From positions 310,001-374,000 of the forward strand of contig JAPEIS010000006.1 in assembly GCA_029531795.1 (NCBI GenBank): a stretch of DNA of 64,000 nucleotides, in the 5' to 3' direction. The stretch is from Sclerotinia nivalis (Eukaryota > Ascomycota > Leotiomycetes > Helotiales > Sclerotiniaceae). Shown piece after piece: positions 4,107 through 35,841 of the stretch (position 1 is its first letter; the number at the start of each line of letters is the position of its first letter). The notes under the pieces were generated by a model. The model ran no database searches. It saw only the letters and a program-made list of their open reading frames with translations, and was not told the origin of the DNA. The translations under genes and the position numbers were made by a program.

Positions 4107-6837
4107 TTGATTGATTGATTGATTGATTGAATTAACGTCTACACTGAGTCTAAGACTATCTAAGACGGCTAGAAGCTTTGTAGGCTCCTAACAAATAACA
4201 ACTGGTGAAATGCTGGCCGTATTAGGCTGTAGCTAGTACAATTTGGAGAGATTGAGATAGCCTCAATCTACTAATTTTGAATAAAGGAAGTGAAAATTAA
4301 TCCTGGGGAATAAAGCCCACTTTACAAATACTCTCGTATATAATAAAGAAAATAACAAATGAAATATGATATAAATCGAAATTGGAACGATTTACCCTGC
4401 ATAGAGGGGTAAATTGATCAAAATAATTAAATTGATTAAATTGATTCAATTAATTATTTTCTCCTAGTTCATCCTTTTCTTCTTTGTCTTCTTGTTCTAT
4501 ATCCTCTTGCATTCTAGCAAGATGCTATAGTCTGATGGCTATTTTTGTTGTTTCGATAAATTCGAGGGTTTTGATGATTCCTATTTTGATATAAAGTAGA
4601 TATTTCATAGAAAGTCGAGAGGTAGGATTGTTTGCTTTGAGTATTCTTCTAGTTGATTTGTATAAAGAGCAATTGAGAAGAAGATGATCTGGGGATTCTT
4701 TCTTTTCATATCTATAATTATCATTTGATGAGATTCCGAATCGTTGTAAGTAGGATTTGAAGTATCTGTGATTGATTTTAAGTTGAAACAAAGTGCTAAT
4801 AGAACTTCTTTTGGTGTTTTCTGGAATTCCGATTTTTGAATTAGTTTTCCAGGAGTATATTTTCGAATAGGCTGATTTGGATGAATTAAGAAGGGATTTC
4901 CATTTCTCGGATTTCGTCCTTTTGATATCCATTCTCAATAAAGCAAAGCTAGTTTCGTTTAATAATGATCTTTGTTTTGTAGCTTCTTTTGCTAAAGCAT
5001 CAACCAATTCGTTTTCTTCAACAAAGGTATACCCTGGAATTCAATTAAGAGAGATTTCAGCTCCTTTTCTAAGGAGAGTTTCTGTGGCTTTGATTACTCT
5101 AATTTGGCATATCTGGCCAGAAGTATCAGAGGATGTTTTCAATCAGTATAATCCGGCTTGATTGTCTAAGTAGATTTTGAATTTTTCGCCTAGTTGAACA
5201 ATGGAACTAGCATATTCGATTGCTCTAATGACTCCAAGAAATTCACCATTATAGATAAACTGATTCACCCCAATATTGATGGTTTCCTGATATGAAACCT
5301 GACCATTCGACAGAATAACTACAATCCCGATTCCAATTCCGATTCCATTTAAAATAGATGAAGCATCAATATATATTGTAATAATATTCTTGCATCTGTA
5401 TTTGAATACAAGATTATAAGCAATTACAGCATCCTCCTTTGCTAGCTTGCTAATATTGACTTTGTATAGAATATCCCTTTTCCAAAAAGGGAAATGAAAA
5501 TGATCGATTTTCTTTAGAATCAAAGGATCGACATCTTCTTCGATTGAATTTATAATCTTCTCAAGCTGAATAAATTTAGATAGTTTTCTTCAAAAGATTA
5601 TTATCGAGCTCTGATCTCCTTTTTCGGCAATCAATCTTTTGGAAATTAGATTAACAGAATGGGAAAATGAGATTTTCAATAATCTGAAAGCATATTGTCT
5701 GATTCCAATATTTAATCTGACTTCCGGAGGGCACAAAGCAGCTTCCACTTCCATTGGTTTTATTAAAGAAGTTTTGAATACTCCCAGTATCTTTCGAAGA
5801 GCGAGATTCTGAAGTAATTGAAGAATCTTTTTGAATTGGACTTGATCTTTCCACCAAATGATTGATCCGTAATCAGCTATATTAATAACACATACTATAT
5901 AGAATTGTTTTAAAGCTTTGGGACTAAATCCTTTCTCAGTATTGACTAATCTGGTCATTCGATAGAAAAAGGCTTTAGCTTAAGTAGCTCGGATTGTGAC
6001 ATGTTGTTTGAAATTGAAACCGGAGTCGAACCAAATATCTAGCTATCTAATTAATAATGAGGGTTGTATAATCTCAGAATTTGGGAGCTTGATTGAAGCG
6101 TCTTTTGTGTATTTGGAGATGGAGAAGTGCATTAGCTTCGTTTTTGCTAAATCGAATTGAATAGCGTTTTTCTCATCAAAAGCATAGATCTGTTTCGCTG
6201 CTCTTTCGAGGAAGATGATATTCTTTTTCCAACTTGAGGAATGAGTGATCAAGGCTATATCATCAATATACGAGAGATATTCAACCGAATTCGATTGGAA
6301 GAGATCTCGAATATAGATTAGGAAGAGGATTGGTGAGATTGGACTTCCTTGAGGGATTCCGGTGTTGATTGGTTTAAAGGCTTCGGTTTGATCATCAAAC
6401 GAAAGTTTGAGTAATCTTTCTTCCAAAAATGACGAGATCTATATAATAAGACTAATTGGGAGATTGAGGTTTTTGTAGATATCTAAAAGTCGATTCTTGG
6501 ATACATAATTGAAGGCCCCTTTAATATTTAGGAAAAGGGTTGAGGTTTTCTTTTTGATTCTTGTATTTCTTTCGATTTCGGTGGTAAGCAGGATTGCTGT
6601 ATCGATGGTTGATTTCTTTTGTTTTTTGCCCATTTGGGAATGATGCAATAGATTTGTAGTTTCGGTTAGAAAGCTAAGCCTTTGAGCTAGAATTCTTTCA
6701 CTAATTTTGCCTAAACAATTGAGAAGGGCAATAACCCTATAAGTTTTTGGAATAGTATAATCTGGTTTCGAAGGCTTCTTGAGTATCGCTTCTGTAGCTT
6801 GTTTCCAACAAGAAGGATGGTAACCAAGATTAATCAG
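4107..6837 (-). mobile_element. LINE-A, Tad-like non-LTR retrotransposon (5'-truncated, part 1)
   Basis: The minus-strand 3' end has the tail (TCAA)n at 4,107-4,130, next to the 3' block with AGACTATCTAAGACGGCTAG that is common to all LINE-1 copies here. Broken ORF2 pieces follow in order: Cys/His tail (5,007-4,525), RNase H (5,523-5,143), RT thumb (5,958-5,590), RT with YIDD (6,426-6,043) and RT N-part (6,648-6,439). It is colinear with LINE-B but has many RIP stops. Element E1 interrupts it at 6,837; the rest resumes at 7,951. Confidence 0.85.
4525..6648 (-). pseudogene. LINE-A ORF2 remnant: RT and RNase H
   Basis: The remains encode the C-terminal two thirds of a Tad-type ORF2: reverse transcriptase (GIPQGSPISPILFLIYI and YIDDIAL), RNase H (TIYIDASS; the glutamate in YNGEFLG; LDNQAGLY; VDALAKEA) and a terminal C/H-rich tail of the HLLLNCSLY type. 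At least five open pieces are separated by stops and shifts. Compared with LINE-B, the catalytic Asp in TDAS is kept but several His/Cys are lost (CRCGKR has become YRYEKK). It is not functional. Confidence 0.85.
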
Positions 6838-6923
6838 GGAGGGCGAAGACTCAACACCTGTACGTGGTGCCCTCTACGAACCTCCAGCTCTCTATTGAGA
6901 GTCTGCAGAGCTAAGATTGAGTC
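6838..6923 (+). ncRNA. Candidate HDV-like self-cleaving ribozyme at the 5' end of E1
   Basis: A nested double pseudoknot can be drawn. P1 is 7 bp (6,838-6,844 with 6,869-6,875), starting at the first base of the element with a G-U wobble. P2 is 7 bp (GACTCAA 6,848-6,854 with TTGAGTC 6,917-6,923). P3 is ACC/GGT (6,856-6,858 with 6,866-6,868) with a 7-nt loop. P4 is CTCT/AGAG (6,888-6,891 with 6,907-6,910). The joining strand CTAAGA starts with C6911, where the catalytic cytosine of HDV ribozymes lies. HDV-like ribozymes are known at the 5' ends of several non-LTR elements. Cleavage here is inferred. Confidence 0.72.
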
Positions 6924-7902
6924 ATTTGATGGAATCGGATACATTGGAAGAGAGAGAGAGGGTTTCCCGATTACGATATTCACGATAGAGGGGTTATTAC
7001 GATTTTACAGTATCAATATCTTCGAAAGGATGAACGAACATCAATCCAAAATACGGACGATGGCTACAGAAGCCCTGGTTAGATTCAACATCTGCTATCG
7101 ACTATTACCTCAATACGAGGTATGATACGCCTAGTAAGTCCCTTCTATTCCAGAAGGGTCTTTTCGATACGGAATTTGCTACTGTTTTATTCGCATTTTA
7201 TACCTTTTTTCGACAATCGATTATCGAAAACACATTCATTTTAACACTACGATTATTACGAAACAGAGAATACCATCATCTATCAACTAATACTATGCTC
7301 TGGGCATCGATACGATATTACGCCTTTTCCTCGATTTTACGAAAATATTTTTTGTGTGTGTGTGGGTAAGGTTAGGGCCACGCCCTACTATTATTACATT
7401 CAAATGACCGATATTCCATTCGGCGGTTTCGATTATTTACATTCAAACAAAGCTGAAGATCATCACACCTAGGAAGGCATGCAAAGGAGCTAATGAATGA
7501 GTTCAAGCTGAGGAGAGTGGTGCCTTCCAGTTGCTTTTCACTAGTATGAGGACCCTTTTGCTGTGCTGGAGGTAATCTTGACGGAGATGACTTTTGACCT
7601 TTGTGGGAAGTGGATATCGGAATAGCAGATTGGATCGAAGAAGAAGATTATATCAATAGGATGCTTTAATTAGCAAGGGGTAGGGGGAAAGCGAAGAAGG
7701 AAAAATCTTAGAGGATGAAGATATCGGGCTTTGTTCCCCAGTATTAGTTTTCACTTGCCCTCAATCAACATTTCAAGGGTTGAAAAGAAACCCAAACTAT
7801 ACAAACTGTATGTTAGCTAGCATACAACTCCCTATAGCATCAACTAGGAGCTCATAGAGCCCCTAGCCGTCCTAGATAGTCTTAGACTCAGTGTGGACGT
7901 TA

Positions 7903-7937
<35 letters not shown>
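6838..7937 (+). mobile_element. E1: ~1.1-kb non-autonomous retroelement inserted in LINE-A
   Basis: The insertion splits LINE-A and is flanked by a 13-bp target duplication CAAGATTAATCAG (6,825-6,837 and 7,938-7,950). It has no long conserved ORF. Its 5' end starts at G6838 with an HDV-like ribozyme fold. Its 3' end carries the same block as the LINEs (GGGCTTTGTTCCCCAGTATTAG, then TAGATAGTCTTAGACTCAGT and GACGTTAA) and an (ATCA)n tail. The shared 3' end and TSD indicate target-primed reverse transcription by the LINE-1 machinery. A second copy, E2, is at 19,721-20,595. Confidence 0.85.
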
Positions 7938-7940
<3 letters not shown>

Positions 7941-7950
7941 GATTAATCAG

Positions 7951-8110: not shown

Positions 8111-8190
8111 ATTGAATCTTGGAGAGAAAAATGAGGACAGTATGATCGACGATTTTCTCGAAGATATAATAGCAGATCAATTATGCAAGA
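8111..8190 (+). pseudogene. EST1-like pseudogene, upstream fragment left of LINE-B
   Basis: Read on the plus strand, this piece is open (…SMIDDFLEDIIADQLCK). It joins, across the LINE-B insertion and its 14-bp TSD (8,177-8,190 = 14,161-14,174), in the same frame to 14,175-14,275 and then 15,318-17,303. Its own sequence has no recognisable domain. The assignment rests on frame continuity. Confidence 0.55.
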
Positions 8191-8516
8191 TTGATTGATT
8201 GATTGATTGATTAAATTAACGTCTACACTGAGTCTAAGACTATCTAAGACGGCTAGGAGCTTTATAGGCTTCTAACAAGTAACAAATGGAGAATTGCTGG
8301 CCATATTCGGCTGTAGCTAATACAATTTGGGAAGATTGAAGTGGCCTCAATCTACTAATTTTTGAATGGGGGAAGTGAAAACTAATCTTGGGGAACAAAG
8401 CCCACCTTACAAATACTCTCGTATATAATAAGGAAAATAACAAATGAAATATGATATAATTCGAAATTGGAACGATTTACCCCACATAGAGGGGTAAATT
8501 GATCAAATTGACCCAA

Positions 8517-11500
8517 TTAACCATTTTCTCTCAGTTCACCCTCTTCACCTTCGCCTTCTTGTTCTACATTCTCTTGCATCCTAATTAGATGCCATGATCT
8601 GGTGGCTATTTTTGTTTCCTCGATAAATTCAAGGGTCTTAATGATTCCTGCTTTGGTGTGAAGTAGGTATTTCATAGTAAGTCGGGAGGTAGGGTTATTT
8701 TTCTTGAATATTCTTCTTATTGATTTGTATAACGGGCAACTGAGTAGGAGATGATTAGGAGATTCTCTCTTTCCACATCTACAATTATCATTTGCTGAGA
8801 TTCCGAATCGTTGTAGGTAAGATTTGAAATATCCATGACCGATTTTAAGCTGAAACAAAGCACTAATAGAGCTTCTCTTGGTGTTTTCTGGAATTCCGAT
8901 CTTTGAGCTAGTCTTCCAGGGGTATATTTTCGAATAGGCCGAATTAGATGAATAGAGAAGAGTATTCCATTCTTCGGATTTCGTCCTTTTGATATCCATT
9001 CCTAAGGAGGCAAAGCTGGTTTCGTTTGATGATGATCTTTGTTTTGTAGCTTCTTTTGCCAAAGCATCGGCCAATTCGTTTCCTTCAACGGAGGTATGCC
9101 CTGGAACCCAATTAAGGGAGATTTCAGCTCCTTTTCTAAGGAGAGTTTCTGTGGCCTTGATTGCTCTAATTTGGCATATCTGGCCAGGAGCATCAGAGGG
9201 TATTTTCAATCGGTATAATCCGGCTTGATTATCTGAGTAGATTTTGAATTTCTCGCCTGGTTGAGCAATGGAGCTAGCATATTCGATTGCTCTAGTGACT
9301 CCAAGAAGTTCACCATTGTAGACAAGCTGATTCACTCCAATATTGATGGTTTCCTGGTGTGAAACCTGACCATTCGATAGAATAACTGTAATCCCGATAC
9401 CAATTCCGATTCCGTCCAAAGTGGATGAAGCATCAGTATATATTGTAATAGTGTTTTTGCATCTGTATTTGAATGCAAGGTTATGGACAATTGCGGTATC
9501 CTCTTTTGCTAGCTTGCTGATATTGACTTTGTATGGAGTATTCCTTTTCCAAGGAGGGAAATGAAAGTGATCGATCTTTTCTAGGGTTAAAGGATCGAAA
9601 TCTTCTTCGATTGAATTCATGATCTTTTCAAGCTGAGTAAGTTTCGATAGTTTCCTTTGAGGGGTTGCTATTGTATTTAGAGCTTCCCTTTCGGTAGCTA
9701 GCTTATCCATAATTGTATTGACGGGATGGGAAGACGAGATTTTCAACAATCTGAAAGCATATTGTCTGATTCCAGCGTTTAATCTGATCTCCGGAGGGCA
9801 TAAAGCGGCTTCCACTTCCATTGGCTTTATTGGTGAGGTTTTGAAGACTCCTAGAATCTTACGTAGAGCAAGATTCTGGAGTAATTGAAGAGTCTTTTTG
9901 AACGAGGCTTGATCTTTCCACCAGATGATTGATCCGTAATCAGCTATGCTAGTGACACATGCTATGTAGAGCTGTCTTAGTGCTTTAGGGCTTAGCCCTT
10001 TCTCAGTATTAGCTAACCTGGCCATTCGATAAAATGAAGCCTTAGCTTGAGTTGCTCGAATAGCAACATGCTGTTTGAAGTTGAGGCCGGGATCGAACCA
10101 TATTCCTAACCATCTGACCAATGATGAAGGTTGTACAATCTCAGAATTTGGGAGCTTGATTGAAGCATCTTTAGCGTATTTGGATGTGGAGAAATGCATT
10201 AATTCCGTCTTTGCTAAATCGAATTGGATAGCGTTTTTCTCACCGAGAGCATAAATTTGTTTGGCTGCTCTTTCGAGGGAAAGGATGTTCTTTTTCCAGC
10301 TTGAAGAATGAGTGATTATAGCTATATCATCAATATACGAGAGATATTCAACCGAATTCGATTGAAAGAGATCTCGAATATAGATTAGGAAAAGGATTGG
10401 TGAGATTGGACTTCCTTGAGGGATTCCGGTGTTGATTGGTTTAAAAGCTTCGGTCTGACCATCGAACGAAAGTTTGAGTAATCTTTCTTCCAAAAATGAC
10501 GAGATCCATACAATAAGACTAATTGGAAGATTGAGGTTCTTGCAGATATCTAAGAGTCGATTCTTGGATACATAATCGAAGGCCCCTTTGACATCTAGGA
10601 AAAGAGCTGAGGTTTTCTTTTTGTTTCTTGAATTCCTTTCGATTTCGGTGGTAAGCAGGATTGCTGTATCGATGGCTGATTTCTTTTGTCTTCCACCCAT
10701 TTGGGAATGATGAAGTAGTTTTGTTGTTTCAGCAAGGTAGCTAAGCCTTTGAGCTAGTATCCTTTCACTTATCTTGCCTAAACAATTCAAAAGAGCGATA
10801 ACTCTATATGCTTTTGGAATAGAATAATCTGGTTTCGAAGGTTTTTTGAGTATAGCTCCAGTAGCTTGTTTCCAGCAAGAAGGATGATAACCGAGATTAA
10901 TCAAATTGCTGAAAAGAGTAAAGAAAGCTTTTGGGATCGCTTTGTAAGCTCGAATAATGATCTCCTGAGTAATTCCGTCTGGGCCAGGGGTCTTTCCTTT
11001 GATTTTAGCCGAGCAAGCATTGAGAAGTTCATTTTCAGTGAGATCAGGCCATTCCCATTTTTTTGATTGTTTATACCCTTCCTATTCAGATACAATTGTA
11101 TATAGGGGGGGAGGGAAAAGGGTAGATTTGAAGGCCAAACATTTTCCTTCGAATAAGCTTTCAAACTGAGAGAAACTAGATTGAATATTCGGGATTTTTT
11201 CGGTTCGAAGATCTTTCGTATATAATATTGCTTTGAAGATCGTTTGAGTATCCTCTTTTTCAAGGAATTCGTTCTAATGATTCTTTTTTGCTGTTTTAAT
11301 AACTTGAAAGTAATGATTCCTTGCTGATTGGTAGATTTTCTTGAACATATCGTCTTCAAAGTATCGTTTAGTATTCTCATATACTGATGAAAGCTGTTTA
11401 CAAAGGGCTTTCAATTCTGGAGACCACCAAGGCTTTGCTTTTTTGATCGATTTGGATCTAGGTATACTAGTGTTTACTGAATTGGTGATAATTCGAGTGA

Positions 11501-12427
11501 ATTCCATTGCGGCTTTATCTAGTATTTGTATATACAGGTTTTTGTTAAGAAGAGAATCGAAAGAATCGGATTCTAGAATGAGGAGATTGAGGTATTCGCT
11601 CGAGTTGAGGATTGTTGATATAGCTATCTCAATTTCGAGGGTTAATACAAATTTGTTCCAATCCGTTAGTTTTGTATTGAACTTTGCTAATGGAGCAATA
11701 TTCGTAGTATAAAATGAAATACCTTTCACTTCAAACAGGATCCCTAAATGATCTGAACCAAGATCAGGAAGAACTTGCCAATCAATAATATTGGAGGATA
11801 TTGTTTCAATAGCTAATGTAAGATCTAAAACACTTGGATTTATCATATTAGTTCGATAGAAAGTACTAATCCCTGGTTCATTGAGAAGGGTAAGGTTTTG
11901 GTCTTCGAATCATTCGGCTAATTGATCAGCATTCGAGCTTTTGTTTGAAAAAGGGTCCTATCAAGGATGGTGAGAGTTGAAGTCCCCTGTAAGAATAGTA
12001 TGATGAGAGAGAGAGTATTGAAAAGGCATCTTTCAATAGTATACCCTTTCTCTTTAGCTTGATCAGCTTCATTGTATATATTGAATAATTGAATCGTGTG
12101 ATTTCCCTGAGTGATATCGATAATTTGAATATCTGTATCTTTGGGAGAGTTGGGGGCTAGGGCTACTAGCGGTTTGAATTCTTTCGAGATGTAGGCCATT
12201 GTATGGAGACGAAGGTTCGAAGGATAATTTGGAAGGAGTTGGGAAAAGCTAGAATGAGCAATCGATCTAGTTGAAGAGTAATCTTTCTCAGGGTTTGAAA
12301 GGACCCAAGGTTCTTGAATGATTATAAGATCGATATCGAATTCTAAAGCAAGTTGAAGAGCACTTTCGATAGCTTGAGGGCTTTTGTTTAGGTTGATTTG
12401 AAGAATGCGAATATTGTTGTATAACAT
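8517..12427 (-). pseudogene. LINE-B ORF2: AP endonuclease, reverse transcriptase, RNase H
   Basis: ORF2 starts with the ATG at 12,427. The endonuclease begins ILQINLNKSPQAIE, has the catalytic Glu in IIIQEPWVL, and later GDFNSHHP and LGSDHLG (the SDH motif). The RT region has TPGPDGI, GIPQGSPISPILFLIYI and YIDD. RNase H keeps all four acids: TDASS, YNGELLG, YSDNQAG, ELADALAK. The tail has CRCGKRESPNHLLLSC. From 10,904 to 8,517 the frame is open for 795 codons. Upstream it is broken by stops in Trp positions (about 11,276, 11,900, two in a row near 11,960), a TAG near 11,083 and a frameshift near 12,000 in a TC repeat. Confidence 0.9.
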
Positions 12428-13907
12428 TAATTGGATTTCCGAATGGTTGTTTGGTATATTTCGTATGCTTTAGAGCTAGCTTTATGCTCTCTTTTGCAAT
12501 TAGTGTATTTGATTATTAAATGCTGACAAGGTTTGCTTTTAGTTTGACAAATTAGACAAAAATGATCAGCTGTAGTATGATTATTGCTACAAAGTCCACA
12601 AGCTGGAGGTTTTTTGCAATATGATTCGTTATGGCCGAATCCTTGACATTTATTGCATTGAAAGGAAGGAATGGAAGGATAGAATCTTTCAACTCTGATA
12701 TTAATACCAGTGATATATAGTCTTTTTCGAATAGCTAATTCTGCTTCCTTTTGTATAGCAAACGCAATCACAATTGTTCCTTTTTGTTGAGTAGCTCTTT
12801 TAGAAGCATTAGTAAGCCAATAAGGGGTACCCATTATAATGAGCCCTGAATTGAAGGTTTTAATTTCGTCTTTAATCAAATCTATTCCTTTTGGATTAGA
12901 GAATTCCTTGATTGGGATCTTGTGTATAATCACTTTGTGTTATGGTTTGTCGATTTGAAGTCTTTCTGATTCGAGGATACGATTCCAGACTTCTTTTTTT
13001 TCTATAAGGAATTGTGTATTGAAGGGGCTATTAATGGTTAGGATGATATTGTTGCTTCTGATTGTAGTAATGGCCGAGATAACTAGTCCGTTGATACTAG
13101 CTTTTTGAAAGCTTCATTGATCTTGTTTCTTGTATATAATGGTATAAAGGAATTGGGTTGATGAAGAAGTGGATTGATAAGGATTAATCGTTTACTAGGA
13201 ACATCATTCTTTTGTTCTACAGACTTTTGTTTTGTAAAGTTCCCTTTGGAAACTACTTTCCATTCCCCTACTGATTTGGTAACAATAGTATAGCTTGCTT
13301 TGTTAATTGATGAAGCGTTTGTTGAAGGAGTAATTGATTGATTAGGAAGATTGGAAAGATGATTAGTTTGATTTTCAATCCTTTTGATAGCCTTTTCGAG
13401 ATGGGAGATTTGTAATGTGATAATATTCGAAGTTTTTGTCAATTTTCCTTTTTCGAGGTATTCACGGAATATTTCGATTAGATCTAGGATCTTCGATTGT
13501 TCTTCGGTTTCCTTTTCCAAAAAGGCAGCTAGAATAAGAAGATCTCTAGCTTTTTGGATAGTTTCTTTTGGTTTTGTAAAGTTAGATCCTGATTGACTAA
13601 ATTGTTTGATTCCGGAGTTGATTGATTGTCGACGACGTTTGTTATTGATTTTAAAAGGAATCGATCTATTAGGGGATCGGAATGGATCATCTGAATTGAG
13701 AATATCCAATTGGTTTTGCGAATTGAAAGATTGGGCTGGGGTAGGACTCAAGAGATTGGGTGATCTTTGTATTGTGAAGGGGTTTCTGGATGGGGGGATT
13801 GGATCAATGGTGGAGGGGCTGGATGTTGGAGAGCCTAGCATCACTATTACTCGTGGGGGAGTAGGTTCAGGGGATGATCCAAGGGATCCTTTCATCGGAG
13901 AGTCCAT
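12427..13907 (-). pseudogene. LINE-B ORF1: gag-like RNA-binding protein with CCHC knuckle
   Basis: Starts at the ATG at 13,907, with a proline/serine-rich N-terminus and a basic stretch NNKRRRQ. The C-terminal part has a CCHC zinc knuckle (CNKCQGFGHNESYC) and more Cys pairs (CGLC, CLIC). Such proteins coat LINE RNA. A one-base shift near 13,085 and a TAA in the middle of KP*HKV (a former Trp) split the frame. The stop overlaps the ORF2 start as TAATG. Confidence 0.85.
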
Positions 13908-14122
13908 TATTGGACTTGATAAACCTATCAGAGCCTTATACGTTCAAATAAGGAGAAAAGTTGAGGGAAGTTGGAAAGAGTTTTTACGCGAATTTTCGTG
14001 TAAGTTTCGTGTTTTGAGCGACGACGACAGTATCACAACAACTACTGAACCGATTCACTTGGGAACAATTGGAATGAATTTTGGGAGTATTTCTTTATTA
14101 AATAAAGGGAAGAACTGGTTGT

Positions 14123-14150
14123 ATTTCGAAGAAATTTTGTTCTTCGAAAT
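14123..14150 (-). promoter_or_regulatory. 5'-UTR hairpin of LINE-B
   Basis: A perfect 11-bp stem (ATTTCGAAGAA / TTCTTCGAAAT) with a 6-nt loop starts 10 nt from the 5' terminus of the element. Its role is unknown. Confidence 0.6.
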
Positions 14151-14174
14151 TTGTTGTGTGTCAATTATGCAAGA

Positions 14175-19720: not shown

Positions 19721-19813
19721 GGAGGACAAGACTCAACACCTGTACGCGGTGTCCTCTACGAACCTCCAGCTCTTTTATTTAATTATTAGAGTCTGCAGAG
19801 CTAAGTTTGAGTC
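19721..19813 (+). ncRNA. Candidate HDV-like ribozyme at the 5' end of E2
   Basis: The same fold as in E1. P1 is GGAGGAC (19,721-19,727) with GTCCTCT (19,751-19,757). P2 is GACTCAA (19,730-19,736) with TTGAGTC (19,807-19,813). P3 is ACC/GGT with loop TGTACGC. P4 is CTCT (19,770-19,773) with AGAG (19,797-19,800). CTAAGT starts at C19801. P1 pair 6 is A-T here but G-C in E1, a compensatory change. The P4 loop differs in length between copies, as expected for a tolerant peripheral loop. Confidence 0.72.
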
Positions 19814-20595
19814 ATTTGATGGAGTCGTGGTGATTGGAAGAGGAAGAGGTATCCGATCGCGACGTTTTTTGCCTCCGAGTTGGCTGATGGCAAAGGCCAG
19901 ATCTCGGTTTTTTGATAGTTGCATTATCGGATTGTGCTTTCTACAACATTACTTTTATTACGAAACAGAGGACAACACCATCATTTACGACAATATACCA
20001 CAAAATCATCTCCAAGATCCCTCTGGGGTATCGGGCGCGATTTATCAAATTCGGTTTTAAGGTTCAGGCTTTACCTCCTTCGATTCGAATCGAAACAACA
20101 ACAATTTATATACTCAAAGGAGCTGCGTAGAACGACCCGAGCTAATGATATATCCGCTATAGAATTCGGCGGAGGATATACTATATATAGAATTAAGGCA
20201 CCTCGTAGGATCAATATCCCTATGGTTTGGAAAGTTCTATAAAATCGATATTAGGCAAAGCATAACCGCTGGGAAGTTACGAACAGGACAAAGAGTTGAT
20301 GTGAAGGAAGGTTGTTTGGATTTGATTGATGAAGGGATCGGATTTGGAAAATTATGAGTGTAATGCTTTGATTGGTATTTTTATCTTTATATGCGATGCT
20401 GTATAGAGGTCGGGCTTTGCTCTCCAGTATTAGTTTTCACTTCCCTCATCAAAAATATATATAAACCTGTATGCTATTTAGATAGCACTACCCATAGCCA
20501 TCTGTTAAGAGCTCGATTGAGCTCTTAACCGTCCTAGATAGTCTTTGACTCAGTGTGGACGTTAATTAAATCAATCAATCAATCAATCAATCAAT
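19721..20595 (+). mobile_element. E2: second copy of the non-autonomous retroelement
   Basis: Its first ~100 bp align with the 5' head of E1. Part of the middle aligns (ATTACGAAACAGAG and following), and the 3' end matches (GGGCTTTGCTCTCCAGTATTAG; GACTCAGTGTGGACGTTAA; (ATCA)n tail). It is about 875 bp, shorter than E1. No clear TSD is visible because LINE-D follows the tail directly. Small ORFs across it are not conserved in E1, so it looks non-coding. Confidence 0.8.
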
Positions 20596-22736
20596 CACTC
20601 ATTCCTTAAGCTAGAAAAAGAATATCATCTTTCTCGAAAGAACAATGAAATAGATCTATACTTTTGATGAAAAAAATGCTATTCAATTCGATTTAGCAAA
20701 AACGAAGTTAATACATTTCTTCATCTTTAAATACACAAAAGATACTTCAATCAAGCTTTTAAATTCTAAGATTATACAACCCTCATTACTAATTAGATAA
20801 TTAAATATTTAATTCGATTCTGGTTTCAATTTCAAACAACATATCACAATCCAAATTACTCAAATTAAAGTCTTTTTCTATTGAATAATCAGATTAGTCA
20901 ATATTAAGAAAGGATTTAGTTTCAAAGCTTTAAAACAATTTTATATAATATATATTACTAGTATAGCTGATTACAGATTAATCATTTGATGAAAAGATCA
21001 AATCCAATTCAAAAAGATTTTTCAATTATTTCAGAATCTCGTTTTTCGAAAGATATTAGAAATATTCAAAATTTCTTTAATAAAACCAATGAAAGTAGAA
21101 ACTGCTTTATGCTTTTTGGAAATCAGATTAAATATTGAAATCAGACAATATACTTTCAGATTATTGAAAATCTCACCTTCCCACCCTATTAATCTAATTT
21201 CCAAAAGATTGATTACCGAAAAAGAAGATCAGAACTCGATAATAACCCTTTGAAGAAAACTATCTAAATCTACTCAACTTGAAAAGATCACAAATTCAAT
21301 CGAAGAAGATATCGATCCTTTGATTTTAAAGAAAATCGATCATTTTCATTTCCTTTTTTGGAAAAGAGATACTTTATACAAAATCAATATCAACAAATTA
21401 GCAAAGGAGGATACTGCAATTGTTTATAACCTTACATTCAAATACAAATACAAGAATACCATTACAATATATACTGATACTTTATTCATTTTGAATAAAA
21501 TCGGAATTGGAATCGGGATTGCAGTTATTCTATCGAATGGTCAGGTTTCATATCAGGAAACCATCAATATTGGAATGAATCAGTTTATCTATAATAGTGA
21601 ACTTTTTGGAGTTACTAAAGCAATCGAATATACTAGCTCTATTGCTCAACTAAGCGAAAAATTCAAAATCTATTCAAATAATCAAGCCGGATTATACCGA
21701 TTGAAAACACCCTTTGATGTTCTTAGCTAGATATACCAAATTAGAACAATCAAAGCTATAGAAACTCTCCTTAGAAAAGAAACTGAAATCTCCTTTAATT
21801 GAATTCCAGGGTATACCTCTATTGAAGGAAACGAATTAGTTGATATTTTAACAAAAGAAGTTACAAAACAAAAATCATCATCAAACGAAACCAACTTTGC
21901 TTTATTGAAAATGAATATCAAAAGAACGAAATCCGAGAAATGGAAATCCCTTTTTAATTCATCCAAATCAGTTTATTCGAAAATATACTTCTGGAAAACT
22001 AACTCAAAGATCGGAATTCCAGAAAACACCAAGAGAAATTCTATTAACACTTTATTTCAATTTAAAATCGGTTACGGATACTTCAAATCCTACTTACAAC
22101 GATTCGGAATTTTATCAAATGATAATTGTAGATATAGAAAGAAAGAATCTTTAGATTATCTTCTTTTCAATTGTTTTTTATACAAATCAGTTAAAAGAAT
22201 ATTCAAAACAAACAATTCTATCTCTCGACTTTCTATGAAATATCTACTTTACACCAAAATAGGAATCATCAAAATTCTCGAATTTATCGAAACAACAAAA
22301 ATAGCTATTAGATTATGGTATCTTGTTAGAATGTAAAAGGATATAGAACAAAAAGACGAAGGAGAAAAAGATGAACTAGGAGAAAATGGTTAATTGGATC
22401 AATTTGATCAATTTGGTTATTTTGATCAATTTACCCTTCTATACAAGGTAAATCATTCCAATTTCGATTTATATCATATTTCATTTGTTATTTTCTTTAT
22501 TATATACAAGAGTATTTATAAAGCGGGCTTTATTCCTCAAGATTAGTTTTTATTTCCTCTATTCAAAATTAGTAGATTGAGGCTATCTCAATCTCTCCAA
22601 ATTGTACTAGCTACAGCCTAATACGGCCAGCATTTCACCAATTGTTATTTGTTAGGAGCCTACAAAGCTTCTAGCTGTCTTAGATAGTCTTAGACTCAGT
22701 GTAGACGTTAATTCAATCAATCAATCAATCAATCAA
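20596..22736 (+). mobile_element. LINE-D: heavily RIP-mutated Tad-like LINE, plus strand
   Basis: It starts inside the RT (…ITHS, then KKNIIFLER) directly after the E2 tail. It ends with TAGATAGTCTTAGACTCAGT, GACGTTAA and a (TCAA)n tail at 22,736. Two open pieces (21,320-21,730 and 21,905-22,336) give RNase H (TIYTDT, YNSELFG, YSNNQAGLY) and the C-terminal tail. Catalytic positions are damaged (SNN in place of SDN). Its AT content is far higher than that of LINE-B or LINE-C, so it is older or more strongly mutated. Confidence 0.85.
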
Positions 22737-23510: not shown

Positions 23511-26113
23511 AGAAACAGACCCTTATGTGCAAAAGTAGGATTTTAGGACTTATCGCACAATGCGATGGTTACTGACTGGTTGGGTGGTGGTGTATTTAGG
23601 TAAGATGTCGGAGCTTAGAAATCCCGCTTCTAAATTTAACTTCACAAGTTTTTGAAAAAAACATTTCTCAAAGCTCAATAAAAATTTTGGAAACCAATTC
23701 CTGAAAACATATCAGACCTAAAGTTTCTAACGCGTAGAAGCTATACCCAGCCTCCGGGGTATTGCCCTGTACTCTGGAAACAGCGATGGGATCCTCAACG
23801 TAGCCTTGACTTACTTGGGTTATAGTCAGACCTAATTGAAGAGCATATAAACAAACTCAAGGATGATATAAAGGGCTTTGACAGCTTTAATGCGTACAAC
23901 AGAGAATCTATACCGACCTACACGTACAGAACTCTCATAAAGAGTATTAGTACGCTTTGCAACAAGATCCTGTGACAACCTACCTCTACTCAACTCTATC
24001 AAAGTATCAAGAATATCAGAATTCTACTCCAAGGAATTCAAAATACATATCTAAAACTTACAAATCTGTTCAAGAGATACAAAACAACAACCTCTATTAA
24101 CACTGCAACAGATAGTATTTCAACAACCACCAAAACATATACCTTTACTACAACCTCCCGAACCTCTACCTCTGCCCTCCAAACAACATATATTGACTTC
24201 TAAAAATCGAAATCAGCACAACAATTTTTGTTCCATCTGCGAATTCAGATGCTTGAACTTTGTCCTCAGGAAATCGTTTTGCTGTACAGATACTCCTCCG
24301 GTACAATATCGAATAACTTTGGTTCAAATCGATATTCGATATGAAGGATTTCTGAATATATGTAAAGAGGGAAAAGACAATACTATAAATAAAACAAAAG
24401 ACACCAATCGGGAAAAGAAAAAAATGATTGATTAAAATCAGGGATTGGAGGTAGTAAGTATTGTCTGGGAACTCTAGCTAGCGTTGCTTTAGCTCGACAA
24501 CAAATTCTCGAATTTGAAATAGAATTGTTTTGTTATAAACAGGATTTGAAAGAAGGGGAGGGAAAGGAAAAGATTATACACTACACCCTACAGCTTGTAC
24601 ACCATTTCGCATTACCTTGCCGGATCTCTCCTACACAACAAAACCGACCATATCTTGCAAGCTTTGCTGTATCTTAACCCCTAACCAGGTAGCATAGAAC
24701 ACAGCGTTTCCAGCTCACTAACCAAAGTGTCCTTGTACAAGCCTTCTTCCCAATGTATAGTTCGTAACCATGTAAAGAATCAACTCGAAACGCATCGGAT
24801 ACACCGAATCAGAATCGAAAGGTGCCGTAGCCCCTAGTAAGAGCATTCTAATCCCGTATTATCGTCCTTGGGCCTGTCTCTACAACAACGCTTCTCTGGA
24901 ATCCGCAGAAACCTTTATACTATATCCCTCTATATATACTACAATATTTATTAGACCTCCCATAAACCCTTTATAATCGCTCTCCTTCCCTTTGCATCCT
25001 CTACTGGACTCAAAAAGACACTACCTAATCCGCTCCCCTATACCACTACTCCCCTCAATCATCTATAAACTTCCGGCAAGGTATATCTACAAACCATATA
25101 TATTGTTGGATTCCGGTCTCTACTCACAACATCCCAGAGGTATCCTATCGACCTCCATCTACGAAAGCTTCCTTCGCAGACTCTACATCCCACTACAGAC
25201 TCATAAGAGCTGGTTCCGCTTAGAGGACTTACGAAATACAAGTCACCCATCAGGCTCTGTACCCCACCGTAGACTCGAAAGGGCCGGTACCGCTTTGAAT
25301 TCGTTATTCGTATCTTCGACCGTCGGATAGTTTTTATCTCCGTTTCGCTAGTAGTCCTCTGTTCCGGGCTCATCGCGAGCGCCTCAGCGATACTCAGCTA
25401 CGCATACCTTCGCTCCAAGTACTGCCTCCGATTAATATACGACCACCACCCAGCTCCAGCGACTCTACTTAGCTCTCCAATAACAAGATCGAAGGTTCGT
25501 AGGATGCACCACGTACAGGTGAGAGTCATCGCATCCCTATATTTTATATAAATAATATTATCTTTATTTAAATTTAATTTAATTTGGAAAGAATTAAATT
25601 TAAAGTTATTTTGTTTTCTTTATAAAATTATTTTCTTAATTTTTATATAAATTTAATATCGATTATAAAGAAAAGAAACTATTTTAAGCTCTAATCATTA
25701 TAATTATTTATTTGTTTATTTGTTTTATTTATAAACCAATATAAGGCCAAGGGCCTCCATACAACGAATCTATATCTAAGGCACTATAGCTAACTAGATA
25801 GTGCATATAATTTCATTTGTTATATATTATGCTCAGCCACATACGACAGCCTTTTGAAATAGACCTTCTTACAATCAATCTGTGCAGTATTTAATCGCCT
25901 TTCAGATATTATTTCTCTCTCCACCTGCTCCCACCTTGGCAACTCTCACAGATACAAGTTATTAAAGTCAGTAGTCGTTGTTCAGTATTATATATCAGCG
26001 ACAGATCTCTTAAACATAGCTAGACGCTTTGATTTCTGGACTGTCTAGAGTCTCCCATATCGTTAGTGGTACTAACTTTGACCCCGCACCGCGTTCTTTA
26101 TCTCACGGCTCAG
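23511..26113. other. AT-rich intergenic stretch, no supported gene
   Basis: Only short ORFs without recognisable similarity occur (for example 24,193-24,435 and 24,992-25,330). The part at 25,540-25,740 is almost pure A/T. A degenerate segment near 24,990-25,080 resembles 38,340-38,450. The stretch probably holds old RIP-erased repeats. Confidence 0.45.
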
Positions 26114-28484
26114 ATGGCACACGCCTTACAAGAAGAAACCCGAAATCATCAAGGGTCGACGCAAAGCAGCAACCAGGTTGGTACACCGATCTTTCATAGT
26201 ATGAAAGCATGTTGACACTGTCACAGGAACTTGACAGCCAAAAACTTCTCAAGGCTCCAGCAATTTCGGTTGATCCCGATGCCTGTGATCAGCACAATGC
26301 AGTCGCCTCTTTCTCAGGATGGATAAGCGAGTGCGAAGCTTGCCAAAACATCTGGCGTTGTTTTTCGCGGCCAGATTCGGCAAATCCGGTCAAGCTGGGC
26401 TATATTACGGAGGCTCTCGCCACACAGTGCCGCACACATAAGCCTTAGTACAAGCTTTTGTTGACTATGCGCGCCTATGGAAAGAACCCGCCAGGTTATC
26501 AAAGCAAGAACCGGGTGACCTTGGCATCATCCCTGGAGGTTTAAAGGAGAGCGTCATGATTACAGAGTCGATCTCAAAGTTGGGTTTGTGCTGGAGTCTG
26601 TTGCTAGTGAAGAAGGAGTCTGTACCACACCATCCTGGTATTGGTCGCATTCTAAACCCTGATTGGGTTGAGGTAGGTATGCTGAAGCGATGGAAAAAGC
26701 AGTGTCTTTCGACACATGGTGCGGAATGCGAGAATCCGTGGAAGATTTGGCCGAAAAGGCCAGCTTTTCTGATCGACCTGAAGAACAAGTGCCTTGTCGC
26801 GGGCTGTATCTCTGGCGCTTTTGTGACACTCAGTTACAGGTACGGGAGATCACCTATTCCTACAATTGACGCCGTGATGCTTGAAAGGCTGCAGGAGCCG
26901 TATGCTCTGGATGCCCTGGAGTTTGAAGAATTTTTGTCGCCAGTGATCCGACATGCCATGTTTTTGACCTCGGTCATAAGCGAGCGGTATCTCTGGGTAG
27001 ATGCACTCTGTATCCCTCACGCAAACGAGGAACTCAGAGCTGAGGAATTGAACATGATGGGCGCTATCTACGGCAACGCAGTCGTCACAATTATTGCTGC
27101 AGATGGCGACGCACAAGATGGGCTTCGTGGTCTGGAAGGTGTTTCTCAATCCAGAGACATAAACCAACGCATTATCCTCTTCGGTGATGAGCAAATTACT
27201 GTGAGGAATACAGATATTTTCGATTTATCGGGTGGGGACGATTATCATAGCAGAGGTTGGACATTTCAGGAATACCGTATGTCAAGAAGAATGATAATAT
27301 TCAAGAATGATGAGCTGCACTGGCAGTGTCAGTGTAGCGTTTGGCACGAAGAGATGATCCCCGATGCGGAAATTGACAAATACATCGACCTGCGGCAGAC
27401 TGTCATCACGGCTGGCTTTCCCGACTTGGGTTCTCTGAGCCATATCCTCTCAAACTTCAATACAACAGAACTTCGGTACGACGAGGACGCTTTGCCCGCT
27501 ATCTCTGGGTTGCTGTCAGTCCTGAGTCGTACATTCACTGGCGGATTCTTGTACGGCATCCCGGAGATGTTCTTCGAACGAGGATTAGGCTGGAGTCCCT
27601 ACTGGAACCACACGAACACCCGACGACGTAATTTTTCAGAACGATTTGGAAAGGACCGTCCGTCTCAGGCAGGCTTACCATCGTGGTCTTGGGTCGGCTG
27701 GCACGGTCTCCTTAACCTCTTCGGGTACGGCGAGGCGGCTCGAATCAACGACATACAAAATTGGATCGAAGAAACAATTCCGATCACAGAGTGGTACACG
27801 AGCAAGTCTTCCAGCGACTTGCCGGAAAATAGAAGGAGAATCAGGTCCACGTGGTTTGAAAATCGCGATAAGTACAAGGATTTTGCGAAGCCATTGCCTT
27901 CTGGCTGGTCTTGCCACGACGCCCCCGACACAGGATCGTTCCGGGGCGAGCCTCACTTACACCCGGATGAGTGTGGGAAATACATTTTCAAACATGTGGA
28001 CATGCCCGATCCTGACATGGGATCGTGGTACTATCCATTCCCGGTCTCCGACATCCATAACTCGACGCCGCCAGTCACGCCTGAGCAGACATCCTATTTG
28101 TTTTGCAAGACTTGGAGGGCGCGCCTCTGGGGACGACAGGCTAGCGAAGGAAACACTGCTAGGATTTTTAATAGCTCTGGGGAAGACGTTGGCTCTCTGC
28201 AATTACACAACGAAGCTGCCCTGTCCCTCTTCCCAGGCATAGATTCCGAGGTTATTCACGGGTTGCCGGTGGACCTAATAGCCCTGTACAAGTCACGAGT
28301 ATATTCGAAGACGTGGAATGCAGGTCAAGAGAAATATGATCATCTATTGCAGAGAAAAGATAGATATAAAGTATTATGGGTGGAATGGAAGGATGGTATT
28401 GCGTATCGTCTTGCTAGCGGGCAGGTGAAGGCAAGAGAATGGGAAAAGTTAGTTCCGGAGAATATCGAGCTAATTCTAGGTTAG
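26114..28484 (+). pseudogene. HET-domain heterokaryon-incompatibility protein, one-base frameshift
   Basis: Exon 1 (26,114-26,176) is joined through a 50-bp intron (26,177-26,226, GT..CAG) to exon 2. After CRTHKP, near 26,448, the frame stops at TAG. One missing base would continue it as …QAFVDYARLWKE and the long frame to 28,484. HET motifs are present: GAFVTLSYRYG, RYLWVDALCIPH, GNAVVTIIAADGD and RGWTFQEY, then WHEEM. An N-terminal pair CEAC lies upstream. HET proteins trigger cell death on non-self fusion. An alternative start at 26,556 would still give 642 residues with the whole HET domain, so a shortened protein is possible. Confidence 0.85.
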
Positions 28485-32863: not shown

Positions 32864-35805
32864 CTAAAGAATATTACTATATGGATTATTTGTTCCGATA
32901 ATAAAAACCTTCCCAGATTGACATCCAATGGCGAGTGTCGAGCCGGTATACGAGATAACAGAGGTTGTAGCCCGGAAGTCGGGTGGTAACCAAAGCAGGT
33001 TCTGGCCATTCCATATAACCCAAGACCCACTAACACCCAACCCTTGACAGTGGCTTCTACTATTTATTTCTCGAGAAGATGAAGGCAAAGGGAGGTTCGT
33101 GGTTACATTTAACCTAAAACAGCCAATATCTGTAATTAAGGTTGAGTTTGTGACATCAAATAATAAATTCTTAATGTAGCCGTGCTCCTCGAGCGTCTGC
33201 TGTAGTATACCCGTAGCCGTGTCCCAGACCTTGATCGTCTCGTCGTCCGATGCCGACGCTAGCAGCTTCGAGTCGGCCGAGAAGACAACCGAGTTGACCC
33301 AATCGCTATGCCCCTCGAGTATCTGCTGCAGTATACCCGTAGCCGTGTCCCAGACCTTGATCGTCTCGTCGTTCGATGCCGACGCCAGCAGCTTCGAGTC
33401 GACCGAGAAGGCAACCGAGTTGACCCAACTGCTATGCCCCTCGAGCGTCTGAAGAACTGCATTCCATTCCAGATCTGTATTAGGCTCCTGTAGGATCTAA
33501 TCAGGGATATAATTATGGAATGTATTTCGAATAATGCTTTTCTTTGGAGCGAAGGTAAGTGCAGAGGAGTAGAGTTGGAGGGGCGACGAGTTAGCTATAG
33601 AGTAGTAGCTAAGGATAAAGCGTTTTGCATCGTAAAGGAACCTAGATATTTGCTTGCTTTTTATTGGCTTAAAAATTATATTTAGTAAATACTTGCAGCT
33701 AAGAGTAGTGGGTGATATACGTCTATTATAGCCATCAAGCTGTCTACCATCCCAATGCTTTCTCGTAGCCTTCCAATCAAGCTCAATGATTCAAGCCAGT
33801 GGAGAAAGTGACACTTGAGAAAATTGTGGACTTGGTCGCCATCGTGTATACTATTTCCGCTTTCCTTCAAGTGGTACACCCAATACTGGCAAGCATATTG
33901 AATTTCGGATGGTAGGTGAGAATCTATCGTTTGTTTATCAATATCTGCTCGTAGCAATTCTGGTGTCCGAAGATTGCAAATATCTTTCTTGAGATTTTCG
34001 CCTGTCGATAAGAGTTTCAGGCATCGGGTTGCTAACTTCTTATGGGCATCTTTCTCGTCAACCCAAAAGGGGTTCGTCTCGCGTTTCTCAGTATCAGTGA
34101 GAAAGTCCCGGAACGACAGATGGAGCAGTCGTATAAGGTGATCAGGACGAGAGGGGATGCTTAGAACGGAGTGGAGGAGATCTGTTCTACTGTCAACTGT
34201 ACCTTCAGGGACTCCAAGGAGTCGATCGAGAGAAGTAGCGGAAAGAGGGCTAGCGAGAATAACGATCGACCCAACGGCTTGCTGGAAGTCTTCTAATAGA
34301 CCTCTTCTCTCTAAAATAGTAACTCCGACGAGTAGCTGGTCTAGGACTGGGAGATATGTTGCGTCAAGTTTAGACGCTTGGCTTCTACTCTGATATTTCA
34401 GGACCTTAGCAAGCTGATCCTTCGGTTGGCCGCATTTTCGGTCATTGATGAATCGGCAGACGGTTATAGCAAAAATAAACAATGGGATAGCCATTCCGAC
34501 TAAACTTTGAACGATTGTGTGGTCCGGCCAATCCGCGGGTAATTGCCGGTTTTGTGTGACTGATTTGTTATAATCTTCTCGGATTATTGCTAGTTCATGT
34601 TCTAGGAATGAAGAGATGTCCGCCTTAACAATTGGCTCGGGAATTTGATGGAGAATCAATCTTTCATACTTACCTCTTATATCCTCAAAGCCTAGGCGAA
34701 TCGGAAGCTCTGGCCTGCTTGTCAAAAAGAACTTGAGTTGTGCTGATGCGATATGCTGCACTTGTGAGAACAGGCGAATAATAGTTCTAACGTCCTCTTC
34801 TCGGTCACACTCGTCAAGGGCATCAACCACAATCACTATACTGGAAGACTTCTGAGGATCGGTTCGTATCTTCCCTAACGGTTGCAAGACAAGTATGTCG
34901 AATTGTTGCTTCAAAGCCTTCCTAGAGATTCCCGGGTCAGCTTCGATCGCATGCTGGACATATGGCGCTAAGGAAGGTAGTTTTTGGACGAGCTGAGTAA
35001 CAATCGTTGCAAAAAACATTCCTGCGTGGCCACGGTCGCCTTCACCCCTCTTAAAGAAGAAACTGGCGCCGAGCTCTCCCATGTCGACAAAGTTTTGGGC
35101 CACGGTGCGGGAGATTGTAGATTTGCCAGTACCCGCCATACCATTTAGCCAGAATATGCGTTCGCTGCCTCGATCGCCAGCCCAGCTATATATCTGCCGA
35201 AGGAGTTCCGCTCGTGTGCCTTGGTAGCATCGGGCATTGTGTTCTTCGTCGTGGGAGTCAAACGCAGCGTTTTCAGCAGACCGCAGTTTATCAAGTACAA
35301 TTTTTTGATGGATGTTAAGAATTTGTACCCTATAGGCATCATCGTCAGCTTCTACTATTTGAAATACGAACGAAATCACGTACTCTTGGTCGACTTGGAG
35401 ATTGAGAGATATGTTGACCTTGCAATTTCCGAGTTTCTCTATGAGACTATCCATCTCTTTGCTCTTGAAAGGCCATTTCAAGGCGCGTATCCCACAGCGA
35501 CTCATTAATTTGTTTCTCCCTCGAGGCTCGAGCTTTGCCTCCAGCTGGGCGAGCTGCTTCTGGCAGTCCTCGACTCCCTTACGCAAGCCCTGGGAATCCT
35601 GGAGTCTCACACCATTTGGACCATCGCATAGTGAATGGATCCTCTCAAGTATTACTTTTAATCCTTGGGCCTCCCGTTGAAGGCGTTCGATATCGTCTCG
35701 AGCATTCTTGACATTCGTGTAGTACTCGGAGCACCGTGAGGCAACTTTTACAGATAAATCGATAACTGCGATAACGCTGGAGGCAATTCCGAGAGCCTTT
35801 GCCAT
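32864..35805 (-). pseudogene. NACHT-WD40 NLR (STAND) protein, frameshifted before the WD repeats
   Basis: The likely start is the ATG at 35,805 (MAKALGIASSVIAVIDL), 12 codons inside the longest ORF. Residues ~1-140 resemble the HeLo-like fungal STAND N-terminal domain. The NACHT has Walker A GMAGTGKST and Walker B IVIVVDALDECD. The frame is open to 33,682. A shift there and a TAG at 33,497-33,499 (IPD*I, a former Trp) separate it from the C-terminal part, which reads FLYDAKRFIL, two WD40 repeats (SKLLASAS, DETIKVWD, twice) and the tail to IGTNNPYSNIL. Such NLRs act in non-self recognition. A truncated protein without sensor repeats could still be made. Confidence 0.88.
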
Positions 35806-35841
35806 TGTTATTGCGATAAAGCAGACGAAGAGAGCGTGCAA

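What the first reader, a model, noticed from the sequence alone, without database searches (positions are those of the whole stretch)
6838..6923. HDV-like ribozyme starting at the first base of element E1
Seen: the element begins right after its 13-bp TSD with a 7-bp P1 whose first pair is G-U, then P2 (7 bp), P3 with a 7-nt loop, P4, and a CTAAGA joining strand beginning with C6911. This is the order and geometry of the HDV ribozyme nested pseudoknot. Known: HDV-like ribozymes release the 5' ends of several non-LTR elements (R2, L1Tc and others). Inference: E1 RNA is freed from host transcripts by self-cleavage exactly at the TSD boundary, in a fungal non-autonomous element.
Basis: partly seen in the sequence, partly recalled or inferred. 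Interest (0 to 1): 0.9.

Follow-up and report, generated by a model that had tools for sequence, protein, structure and literature searches.

The report
Self-cutting RNA heads fungal jumping genes
In a fungus related to grey mould, several families of short parasitic jumping genes begin, to the exact base, with an RNA shape that looks able to cut itself free from host transcripts, while the larger element that seems to copy some of them lacks it.

Summary
Window 6838-6923 folds as a complete HDV-like double pseudoknot whose first base is the first base of a 1.1-kb non-autonomous element (E1) with a 13-bp duplication; a paralogous empty site confirms the boundary. The core matches 224 places in the genome, reversed control 0. 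In 33 of 33 testable E1/E2 copies duplications flank the element, flush with the ribozyme in 27. P1 and P2 covary; a search with P1 left open found new families, 13 of 14 copies with the predicted P1 strand.
E1, E2 and E6 have unrelated bodies; E1/E2 share a LINE-like AATC tail, E6 ends in (CA)n. The AATC-tailed LINE itself starts without the ribozyme (9 of 9). Family E4 (~1.2 kb) is fused to 5'-truncated LINEs at varying points, like Magnaporthe MINE (WEIRD+MGL). Fungal HDV variants are known (PMC5640933); my searches found no paper tying them to retrotransposons. Cleavage is inferred, not measured; Rfam HDV models stay below cut-off, and the fold alone is not rare by chance.

The parts
6825..6837 (.). 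5' copy of the 13-bp target site duplication (CAAGATTAATCAG)
   Evidence: read directly; empty paralogous site
6838..7937 (+). element E1: non-autonomous retroposon with ribozyme head, own body, LINE-like 3' tail
   Evidence: no stop-to-stop ORF of 150 aa or more there
6838..6923 (+). HDV-like ribozyme of E1; predicted cleavage between 6837 and 6838
6838..6844 (+). P1 5' strand (pairs with 6869-6875)
   Evidence: covariation
6848..6854 (+). P2 5' strand (pairs with 6917-6923)
   Evidence: covariation (P2 was not in the model used for alignment)
6855..6855 (+). extra C between P2 and P3, as in the fungal HDV variants of PMC5640933
6856..6858 (+). P3 5' strand (pairs with 6866-6868); loop L3 is 6859-6865
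6866..6868 (+). P3 3' strand
6869..6875 (+). P1 3' strand
6876..6877 (+). P1.1 3' side (A6876-U6861, C6877-G6860)
   Evidence: helix 4, 98.5% paired (its columns lie inside the search pattern)
6882..6910 (+). P4 hairpin with bulges
6911..6916 (+). J4/2 CUAAGA with the presumed catalytic C6911
   Evidence: this C is kept in 55 of 58 aligned matches
6917..6923 (+). P2 3' strand
7724..7937 (+). 3' part shared with E2 and, in two blocks, with LINE 3' ends; AATC repeats at 7903-7940
7938..7950 (.). 3' copy of the target site duplication
19721..19813 (+). ribozyme of an E2 copy (P1 GGAGGAC/GUCCUCU)
19721..20601 (+). element E2 copy, ~0.88 kb (no duplication seen by eye around this copy)
25461..25537 (-). 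ribozyme of an E3 copy (P1 GGGAUGC/GCAUCCU, P2 GACUCU/AGAGUC)
24573..25537 (-). E3 copy, related to family E4; similarity ends near 24573
8189..14160 (-). candidate partner LINE (RT, RNase H, weak endonuclease match), AATC tail, 5' end without ribozyme
   Evidence: its duplication TTGCATAATTGA read by eye

Best explanation
The first ~86 nt of E1 are an HDV-like self-cleaving ribozyme. E1 is read from an upstream promoter as part of a longer transcript; the ribozyme folds, cuts 5' of G6838 and leaves an E1 RNA whose 5' end (5'-OH) is the element's first base. The RNA's 3' tail, shared with an AATC-tailed LINE, lets that LINE's reverse transcriptase copy it at a nicked target; the enzyme runs off at the ribozyme-made 5' end and joins the target, giving full-length insertions with duplications of about 12-16 bp. 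The same kind of head starts several passenger families with unrelated bodies (E1, E2, E4, E6). E4 is found as the 5' partner of 5'-truncated LINEs, best explained by the reverse transcriptase jumping from LINE RNA to the 3' end of E4 RNA and copying it to its ribozyme-made 5' end. Shown here: anatomy, boundaries, covariation, LINE-like tail, chimeras. Inferred: cleavage, host-promoter transcription, mobilisation in trans, template jump.
For: Fold at the exact boundary; empty site; 33 of 33 testable E1/E2 copies with duplications of 12 nt or more, 27 of 33 flush with G1 (6 of 39 element starts had no recognised tail and were not tested). Of 40 E1 copies chosen by their body (best 40 of 91 candidates), 31 have a listed ribozyme at exactly the window's distance and 5 of the 8 others fetched have it: 36 of 39 assessable. 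P1 (4 pairs) and P2 (2 pairs) change on both sides, 97.6% of cells paired. Open-P1 search: 13 of 14 fetched copies have a 7/7 matching P1 strand. J4/2, outside the search patterns: C 55/58, A 57/58, A 58/58. E4 chimeras join the window LINE at 8 different positions; duplications flush with G1 in 4 of 6 fetched (2 perfect; 2 with one mismatch, read by eye). The LINE's 5' end lacks the motif in 9 of 9. G at position -1 in 6 of 75 (p = 0.007 if 19% is expected).
Against: No cleavage data. Rfam HDV models are absent from the whole-window and four-locus scans and score 22.6 against a cut-off of 44 locally; a genome search with RF02682 gave only one unrelated weak match. The structure descriptor finds 1.1 hits per shuffled window and passes only 54 of 67 heads in loci L001-L067 (five of these loci are duplicates). 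Two of five covariation measures do not exceed shuffles; independent P1 types are few (about three in A3, plus the E6-like ones). A pseudoknot-free fold is about as stable as P1+P3+P4 (-25.1 against -24.6). Three of 39 body-selected copies lack the ribozyme; 1 of 6 E4 chimeras shows no duplication and 1 was not resolved. L3 and J1/4 conservation is partly built in by the search pattern.
Confidence: 0.88

Rival explanations
1. The head is a structured 5' RNA, or a DNA promoter as also described for trypanosomatid Pr77, whose pseudoknot serves reverse-transcriptase run-off or another recognition, not cleavage; transcription starts at G1.
For: Pr77 of L1Tc is both promoter and ribozyme (PMC4035085 Background), so a promoter role is possible; no cleavage was measured.
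Against: Unpaired positions that an HDV active site needs are kept outside the search patterns: C at the start of J4/2 in 55 of 58 and the following AA. A mere start site needs no covarying pseudoknot.
Confidence: 0.08
2. An ancestral ribozyme inherited by the families but no longer active in most copies; boundaries reflect old master copies.
For: Copies carry many C>T/G>A changes; 3 of 58 matches lost the presumed catalytic C; some show mispairs; 13 of 67 heads fail the strict descriptor.
Against: 34 of the 40 best-scoring copies are identical over 93 nt (a list sorted by score, so biased). Outside the search pattern the head of 13 E1 copies differs from the majority at 11 of 767 sites against 465 of 9939 in the body.
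Confidence: 0.1
3. Chance fold at the start of a repeat family.
For: The structure descriptor gives about one hit per shuffled window.
Against: Same fold with different helix sequences at the first base of several element families; predicted P1 partners found in new families.
Confidence: 0.01
4. E4 chimeras are DNA recombinants or nested insertions rather than template jumps.
For: 1 of 6 fetched chimeras lacks a duplication; for 11 of 21 copies the sequence after E4 had no match to the window LINE's protein.
Against: Sense orientation, constant E4 3' end in 21 of 28, 8 different LINE joining points, and duplications bracketing the whole chimera in 4 of 6.
Confidence: 0.1

Closest known systems
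HDV self-cleaving ribozyme variants of fungi (Li & Breaker 2017, PMC5640933; section 7 and search passages read)
   Same: Fungal, HDV-like, extra nucleotide (most commonly C) between P2 and P3; two members cleaved in bimolecular assays.
   Different: They report a C-G pair at the cleavage site and a loop E in P4; here the pair is G-U and P4 reads as a bulged hairpin. Their main text has 0 words starting with 'transpos' or 'retro' and calls the gene associations widely variable.
[quoted passage not shown]
   Same: Non-autonomous element = HDV-like ribozyme head + LINE-derived 3' end; the hybrids use a LINE (R1) other than the ribozyme's source and have TSDs.
   Different: In rRNA genes and not common; here dispersed, numerous, with several unrelated bodies, and no ribozyme-bearing LINE was found (one LINE family examined).
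L1Tc/NARTc, ingi/RIME, SIDER (Pr77) of trypanosomatids (PMC4035085, abstract and Background read)
   Same: LINE-dependent short elements starting with an HDV-like ribozyme.
   Different: There the LINE and the short elements share Pr77; here the LINE with the same tail starts differently (9 of 9).
MINE (WEIRD + MGL) of Magnaporthe grisea (PMC2104539, parts 1-4 of 5 read)
   Same: ~1.1-kb non-coding 5' part fused in sense to variably 5'-truncated LINE, flanked by duplications.
   Different: The parts read report no ribozyme in WEIRD; its sequence is not in them and could not be compared (only WEIRD/MINE primers were seen, PMC3978060 passages).
Rfam RF02682 HDV-F-prausnitzii
   Same: Aligns over its whole length exactly at 6838-6924.
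   Different: 22.6 bits against a cut-off of 44.

Membership tests
HDV-like ribozymes (structural class) | Nested double pseudoknot P1, P2, P3, P1.1, P4 in HDV order | tested here: met
   layout rule recalled
HDV-like ribozymes (structural class) | 7-bp P1 beginning with a purine-pyrimidine pair at the cleavage site | tested here: met
   R-Y rule as stated in PMC5640933
HDV-like ribozymes (structural class) | Catalytic C at the start of J4/2 followed by N-R-A | tested here: met
   motif rule recalled
HDV-like ribozymes (structural class) | Self-cleavage 5' of P1 | not testable with these tools
   needs a bench assay
Rfam RF02682 | Gathering score 44 bits | tested here: not met
   22.6 bits; genome search with RF02682: 0 over cut-off, one weak match, L039
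Fungal HDV variants of Li & Breaker | Extra nucleotide between P2 and P3 | tested here: met
   C6855
Fungal HDV variants of Li & Breaker | C-G pair at the cleavage site | tested here: not met
   G-U in 31 of 32 distinct rows with letters, A-U in 1
Fungal HDV variants of Li & Breaker | Loop E in P4 | tested here: inconclusive
   P4 read as a bulged hairpin; no loop-E test made
Ribozyme-headed SIDE | Ribozyme at 5' end, LINE-like 3' end, TSDs | tested here: met
Ribozyme-headed SIDE | 5' end derived from the partner LINE | tested here: not met
   LINE 5' end differs in 9 of 9; other LINE families not examined
MINE-like chimera (family E4) | Constant ~1.1-kb 5' part fused in sense to variably truncated LINE | tested here: met
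   21 of 28 copies show the constant 3' end; 10 of these 21 match the window LINE's protein
MINE-like chimera (family E4) | Duplications around the whole chimera | tested here: met
   4 of 6 fetched, 2 of them with one mismatch; 1 without, 1 not resolved
MINE-like chimera (family E4) | Homology to WEIRD | not testable with these tools
   WEIRD sequence not available here
Classical SINE | RNA polymerase III promoter from tRNA, 5S or 7SL | tested here: inconclusive
   ARAGORN finds no tRNA in the window; A/B boxes not searched

The most novel reading that the evidence does not exclude
E4, and by analogy Magnaporthe's WEIRD, is a new kind of RNA parasite: it carries no LINE tail of its own, but a ribozyme-made 5' end and a fixed 3' end, and spreads by being jumped onto at the 5' end of LINE cDNA, so that its copies are LINE chimeras; E1 and E2 are chimeras that became independent by keeping a short LINE tail. 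The fungal HDV variants would then be mainly retroposon heads.
Probability: 0.35. Interest if true: 0.82.

Novelty: new variant of a known kind. Interest (0 to 1): 0.68.

Why it matters
Fungal HDV-like ribozyme variants were reported in 2017 with widely variable gene associations and no stated job; this genome offers one: defining the 5' end of LINE-dependent passengers. It shows a ribozyme head combined with unrelated bodies and two kinds of 3' tail, while the LINE with the matching tail goes without. It also gives the puzzle of WEIRD/MINE (a highly expressed non-coding RNA seen only fused to LINEs, no solo copy) a testable answer: look for an HDV fold at WEIRD's first base.

Tried and rejected
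Not used as evidence: the descriptor count by itself. Rejected: the AATC-tailed LINE as source of the ribozyme. E1 as a tRNA-derived SINE was only touched (no tRNA in the window). The two viral-contig hits to the core pattern are the same coding sequence in two phage-like contigs, with at best 6/7 pairing at a wrong distance: taken as chance; genome contigs gave 0. The RF02682 genome search gave one weak match, L039, E 2.8, not followed. A protein search with a piece downstream of E4 gave nothing; Pfam matched 1 of 7 such pieces, below its cut-off. scan_promoters_terminators looks for bacterial signals and says nothing here. Rows dropped: A3 was made from the window and 53 of the 67 loci then held; left out were L001-L008 (chosen by identity over 93 nt), L009, L016, L029, L035, L062 (same places as other loci) and L039. 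In one search, 6 of 39 element starts had no recognised tail (L009, L016, L018, L026, L029, L035). One search used 13 E1 copies (L001-L008 left out); its position -1 count left out L059 and counted duplicate loci once.

Full report
What is there. The window lies in a 50.3-Mb, 31-contig genome (G000:C6:310001-374000). At 6838-6923 all HDV helices are present: P1, P2, P3, a 7-nt L3, P1.1, P4, and a J4/2 starting with C6911. P1+P3+P4 alone evaluates at -24.6 kcal/mol, about the same as the best pseudoknot-free fold (-25.1); P2 would add seven pairs. Rfam's HDV-F-prausnitzii model aligns end to end at 6838-6924 with 22.6 bits against a cut-off of 44. No Rfam family reaches its cut-off in the window, and no HDV model appears in the permissive scans of the window or of L042, L019, L018 and L054.

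The element boundary. E1 runs 6838-7937 between two copies of CAAGATTAATCAG. Joined, the flanks align without a gap at the junction to the LINE paralogue at 8186-14172 (87%). The core pattern matches 224 places in the genome with up to 3 mismatches, its reversed control none. Among 38 loci from two searches I examined 39 element starts (L038 has two); 33 had a recognised E1/E2 tail, and in all 33 the longest string shared by the 40 nt before G1 and the 120 nt after the tail start is 12-16 nt (21 in L038's second copy, which includes tail repeats); it is flush with G1 in 27 and followed by 1-6 extra nt in 6. Those loci were chosen by the ribozyme, so I also selected E1 copies by their body (best 40 of 91 candidates): 31 have a listed ribozyme at exactly the window's distance; of the other 9, one is cut by a contig end, and of 8 fetched 5 have it and 3 do not: 36 of 39 assessable.

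Is it a conserved RNA fold? A covariance model from E1 and E3 (P1, P3 and the base of P4 only) found E2 in the window at 80.7 bits; the next match has 10.6. On the 33 distinct rows of 58 matches (A3), 97.6% of 676 cells pair, against 30-44% when partners are slid; four P1 pairs and two P2 pairs change on both sides, and P2 was not in the model. Two of the tool's five measures do not exceed shuffles (pairs with double changes 70/500, further types 500/500); independent lineages are few. As a test I left the P1 3' strand open in a pattern and required a base absent from the known families: 16 exact places came up, 14 of them reading GCTGGCT, one GCTGACT, one GCTGGTT. I fetched 13 of these 16 and one from a second pattern. 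In 13 of 14 a 7-mer fully complementary to P1's 3' strand stands at the start of the conserved sequence (the best of 14 offsets tried); in L103 it is 6 of 7. They comprise 12 copies of one family (E6) and two divergent types (L095, L096), so about three independent confirmations. P2 of E6 (UCUCUC/GAGAGA) is my reading by eye; in L095 I saw no convincing P2.

Is it more than chance? My own structure descriptor hits the window only at the three elements but gives 219 hits in 200 shuffled windows; in loci L001-L067 it passes 54 of 67 heads (five loci are duplicates), one further E6-like head in L059 and 5 other places. The fold alone proves little; its coincidence with the first base of the element, repeatedly and with changed helices, is what matters.

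The passengers. E1 (1.1 kb) and E2 (~0.87 kb) share only nt 1-121 and about the last 200 nt; that 3' part resembles LINE 3' ends in the window in two blocks and ends in AATC repeats. E6 (~0.9 kb) matched the other elements only in the ribozyme, ends in GGACGAAAAATATC(AC)n, and has duplications in 4 of 4 copies (7, 12, 11 and 15 nt, chosen by eye and located), so it probably uses another LINE. E4: 28 places match its head with up to 3 mismatches, control 0; 2 of them (L062, L063) look like E1/E2 beyond P1. In 21 of 28 a constant 3' end (...ATAATATTATNNCTG, by regular expression) is seen; 8 join the window LINE in sense at 8 different positions, and 10 of 21 match the LINE's protein downstream, 8 at 68% or more and 2 at 32-34%. 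Of the other 11, some look like a second LINE by eye (L053 has an endonuclease match, E 0.0018, below Pfam's cut-off); the rest are unidentified. Of six 3' ends fetched, two have perfect duplications flush with G1 (13 and 11 nt), two have one mismatch by eye, one has none, and one was not reached.

The partner. The LINE at about 14160-8189 (-) has RT and RNase H domains and an endonuclease match just below cut-off. The 40 scored relatives of its 5' end (of 143 candidates) all start at query base 1-3 (the query begins there, so this is partly by construction). In the 8 of these I fetched and in the window the start reads CAACAAATTTCGAAG after unrelated flanks: no HDV head. Other LINE families were not examined.

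Mechanism. Best reading: co-transcription, self-cleavage at G1, target-primed reverse transcription by the LINE through the shared tail, run-off at the ribozyme-made end. Hints: in 13 E1 copies the head outside the search pattern differs from the majority at 11 of 767 sites, the body at 465 of 9939, the LINE-like tail at 37 of 2132 (most changes are C>T/G>A, so sequence context may contribute). G precedes G1 in 6 of 75, where HDV ribozymes cleave poorly (recalled); A is the commonest (34). E4's chimeras fit the template jumping proposed for MINE in Magnaporthe (PMC2104539, parts 1-4 of 5 read).

Known or new. HDV-like heads on LINEs and their short partners are known in insects and trypanosomatids (PMC3414825, PMC4035085; parts read), HDV variants in fungi since 2017 (PMC5640933; section 7 and passages read). 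Nine searches of the held library (listings seen, five papers opened) showed no paper tying the fungal ribozymes, or WEIRD, to retrotransposon 5' ends; the library lacks most subscription journals. I therefore call it a new variant of a known kind: HDV-like by structure, activity untested, not a member of RF02682 by its cut-off, and not identical to the published fungal variant.

Noticed in passing
L038 (G000:C4:623000-626026): Two E1 copies head to tail, separated only by the shared target sequence AAGTATATTTTTGT (site, element, site, element, site): re-use of the same site or a dimer.
   Followed up: partly
L046, L090, L091, L099, L103: One E4 and four E6 copies sit at nearly the same nucleotide of one repeat (CTCGTTTGTTCCTACGACCACCTT); an unfilled copy of the repeat lies in L105. 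Possible insertion hot spot.
   Followed up: partly
L002, just before locus position 1501: Six extra nucleotides (TTTTTA) between the duplication and G1, like untemplated 5' additions of non-LTR elements; five other copies have one extra base by the script's reckoning.
   Followed up: no
L040-L067, E4 3' junctions: CC or C commonly lies at the E4/LINE junction, recalling the GCC*A/U template-switch motif reported for Magnaporthe (PMC2104539).
   Followed up: no
window 14272-14210 (-): An imperfect GGAG...CTCC pairing near an AATC-tailed LINE end looked ribozyme-like by eye; a mismatch, and the LINE's own duplication further in (about 14172-14161), argue against it.
   Followed up: partly
window 26442-28484 (+), 33682-35904 (-): HET-domain and NACHT/NPHP3-type proteins, typical fungal self/non-self genes.
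   Followed up: no
window 36312-38060 (+): Neighbouring ORFs with HTH_psq and DDE_1 domains, probably one DNA transposon split by a stop.
   Followed up: no
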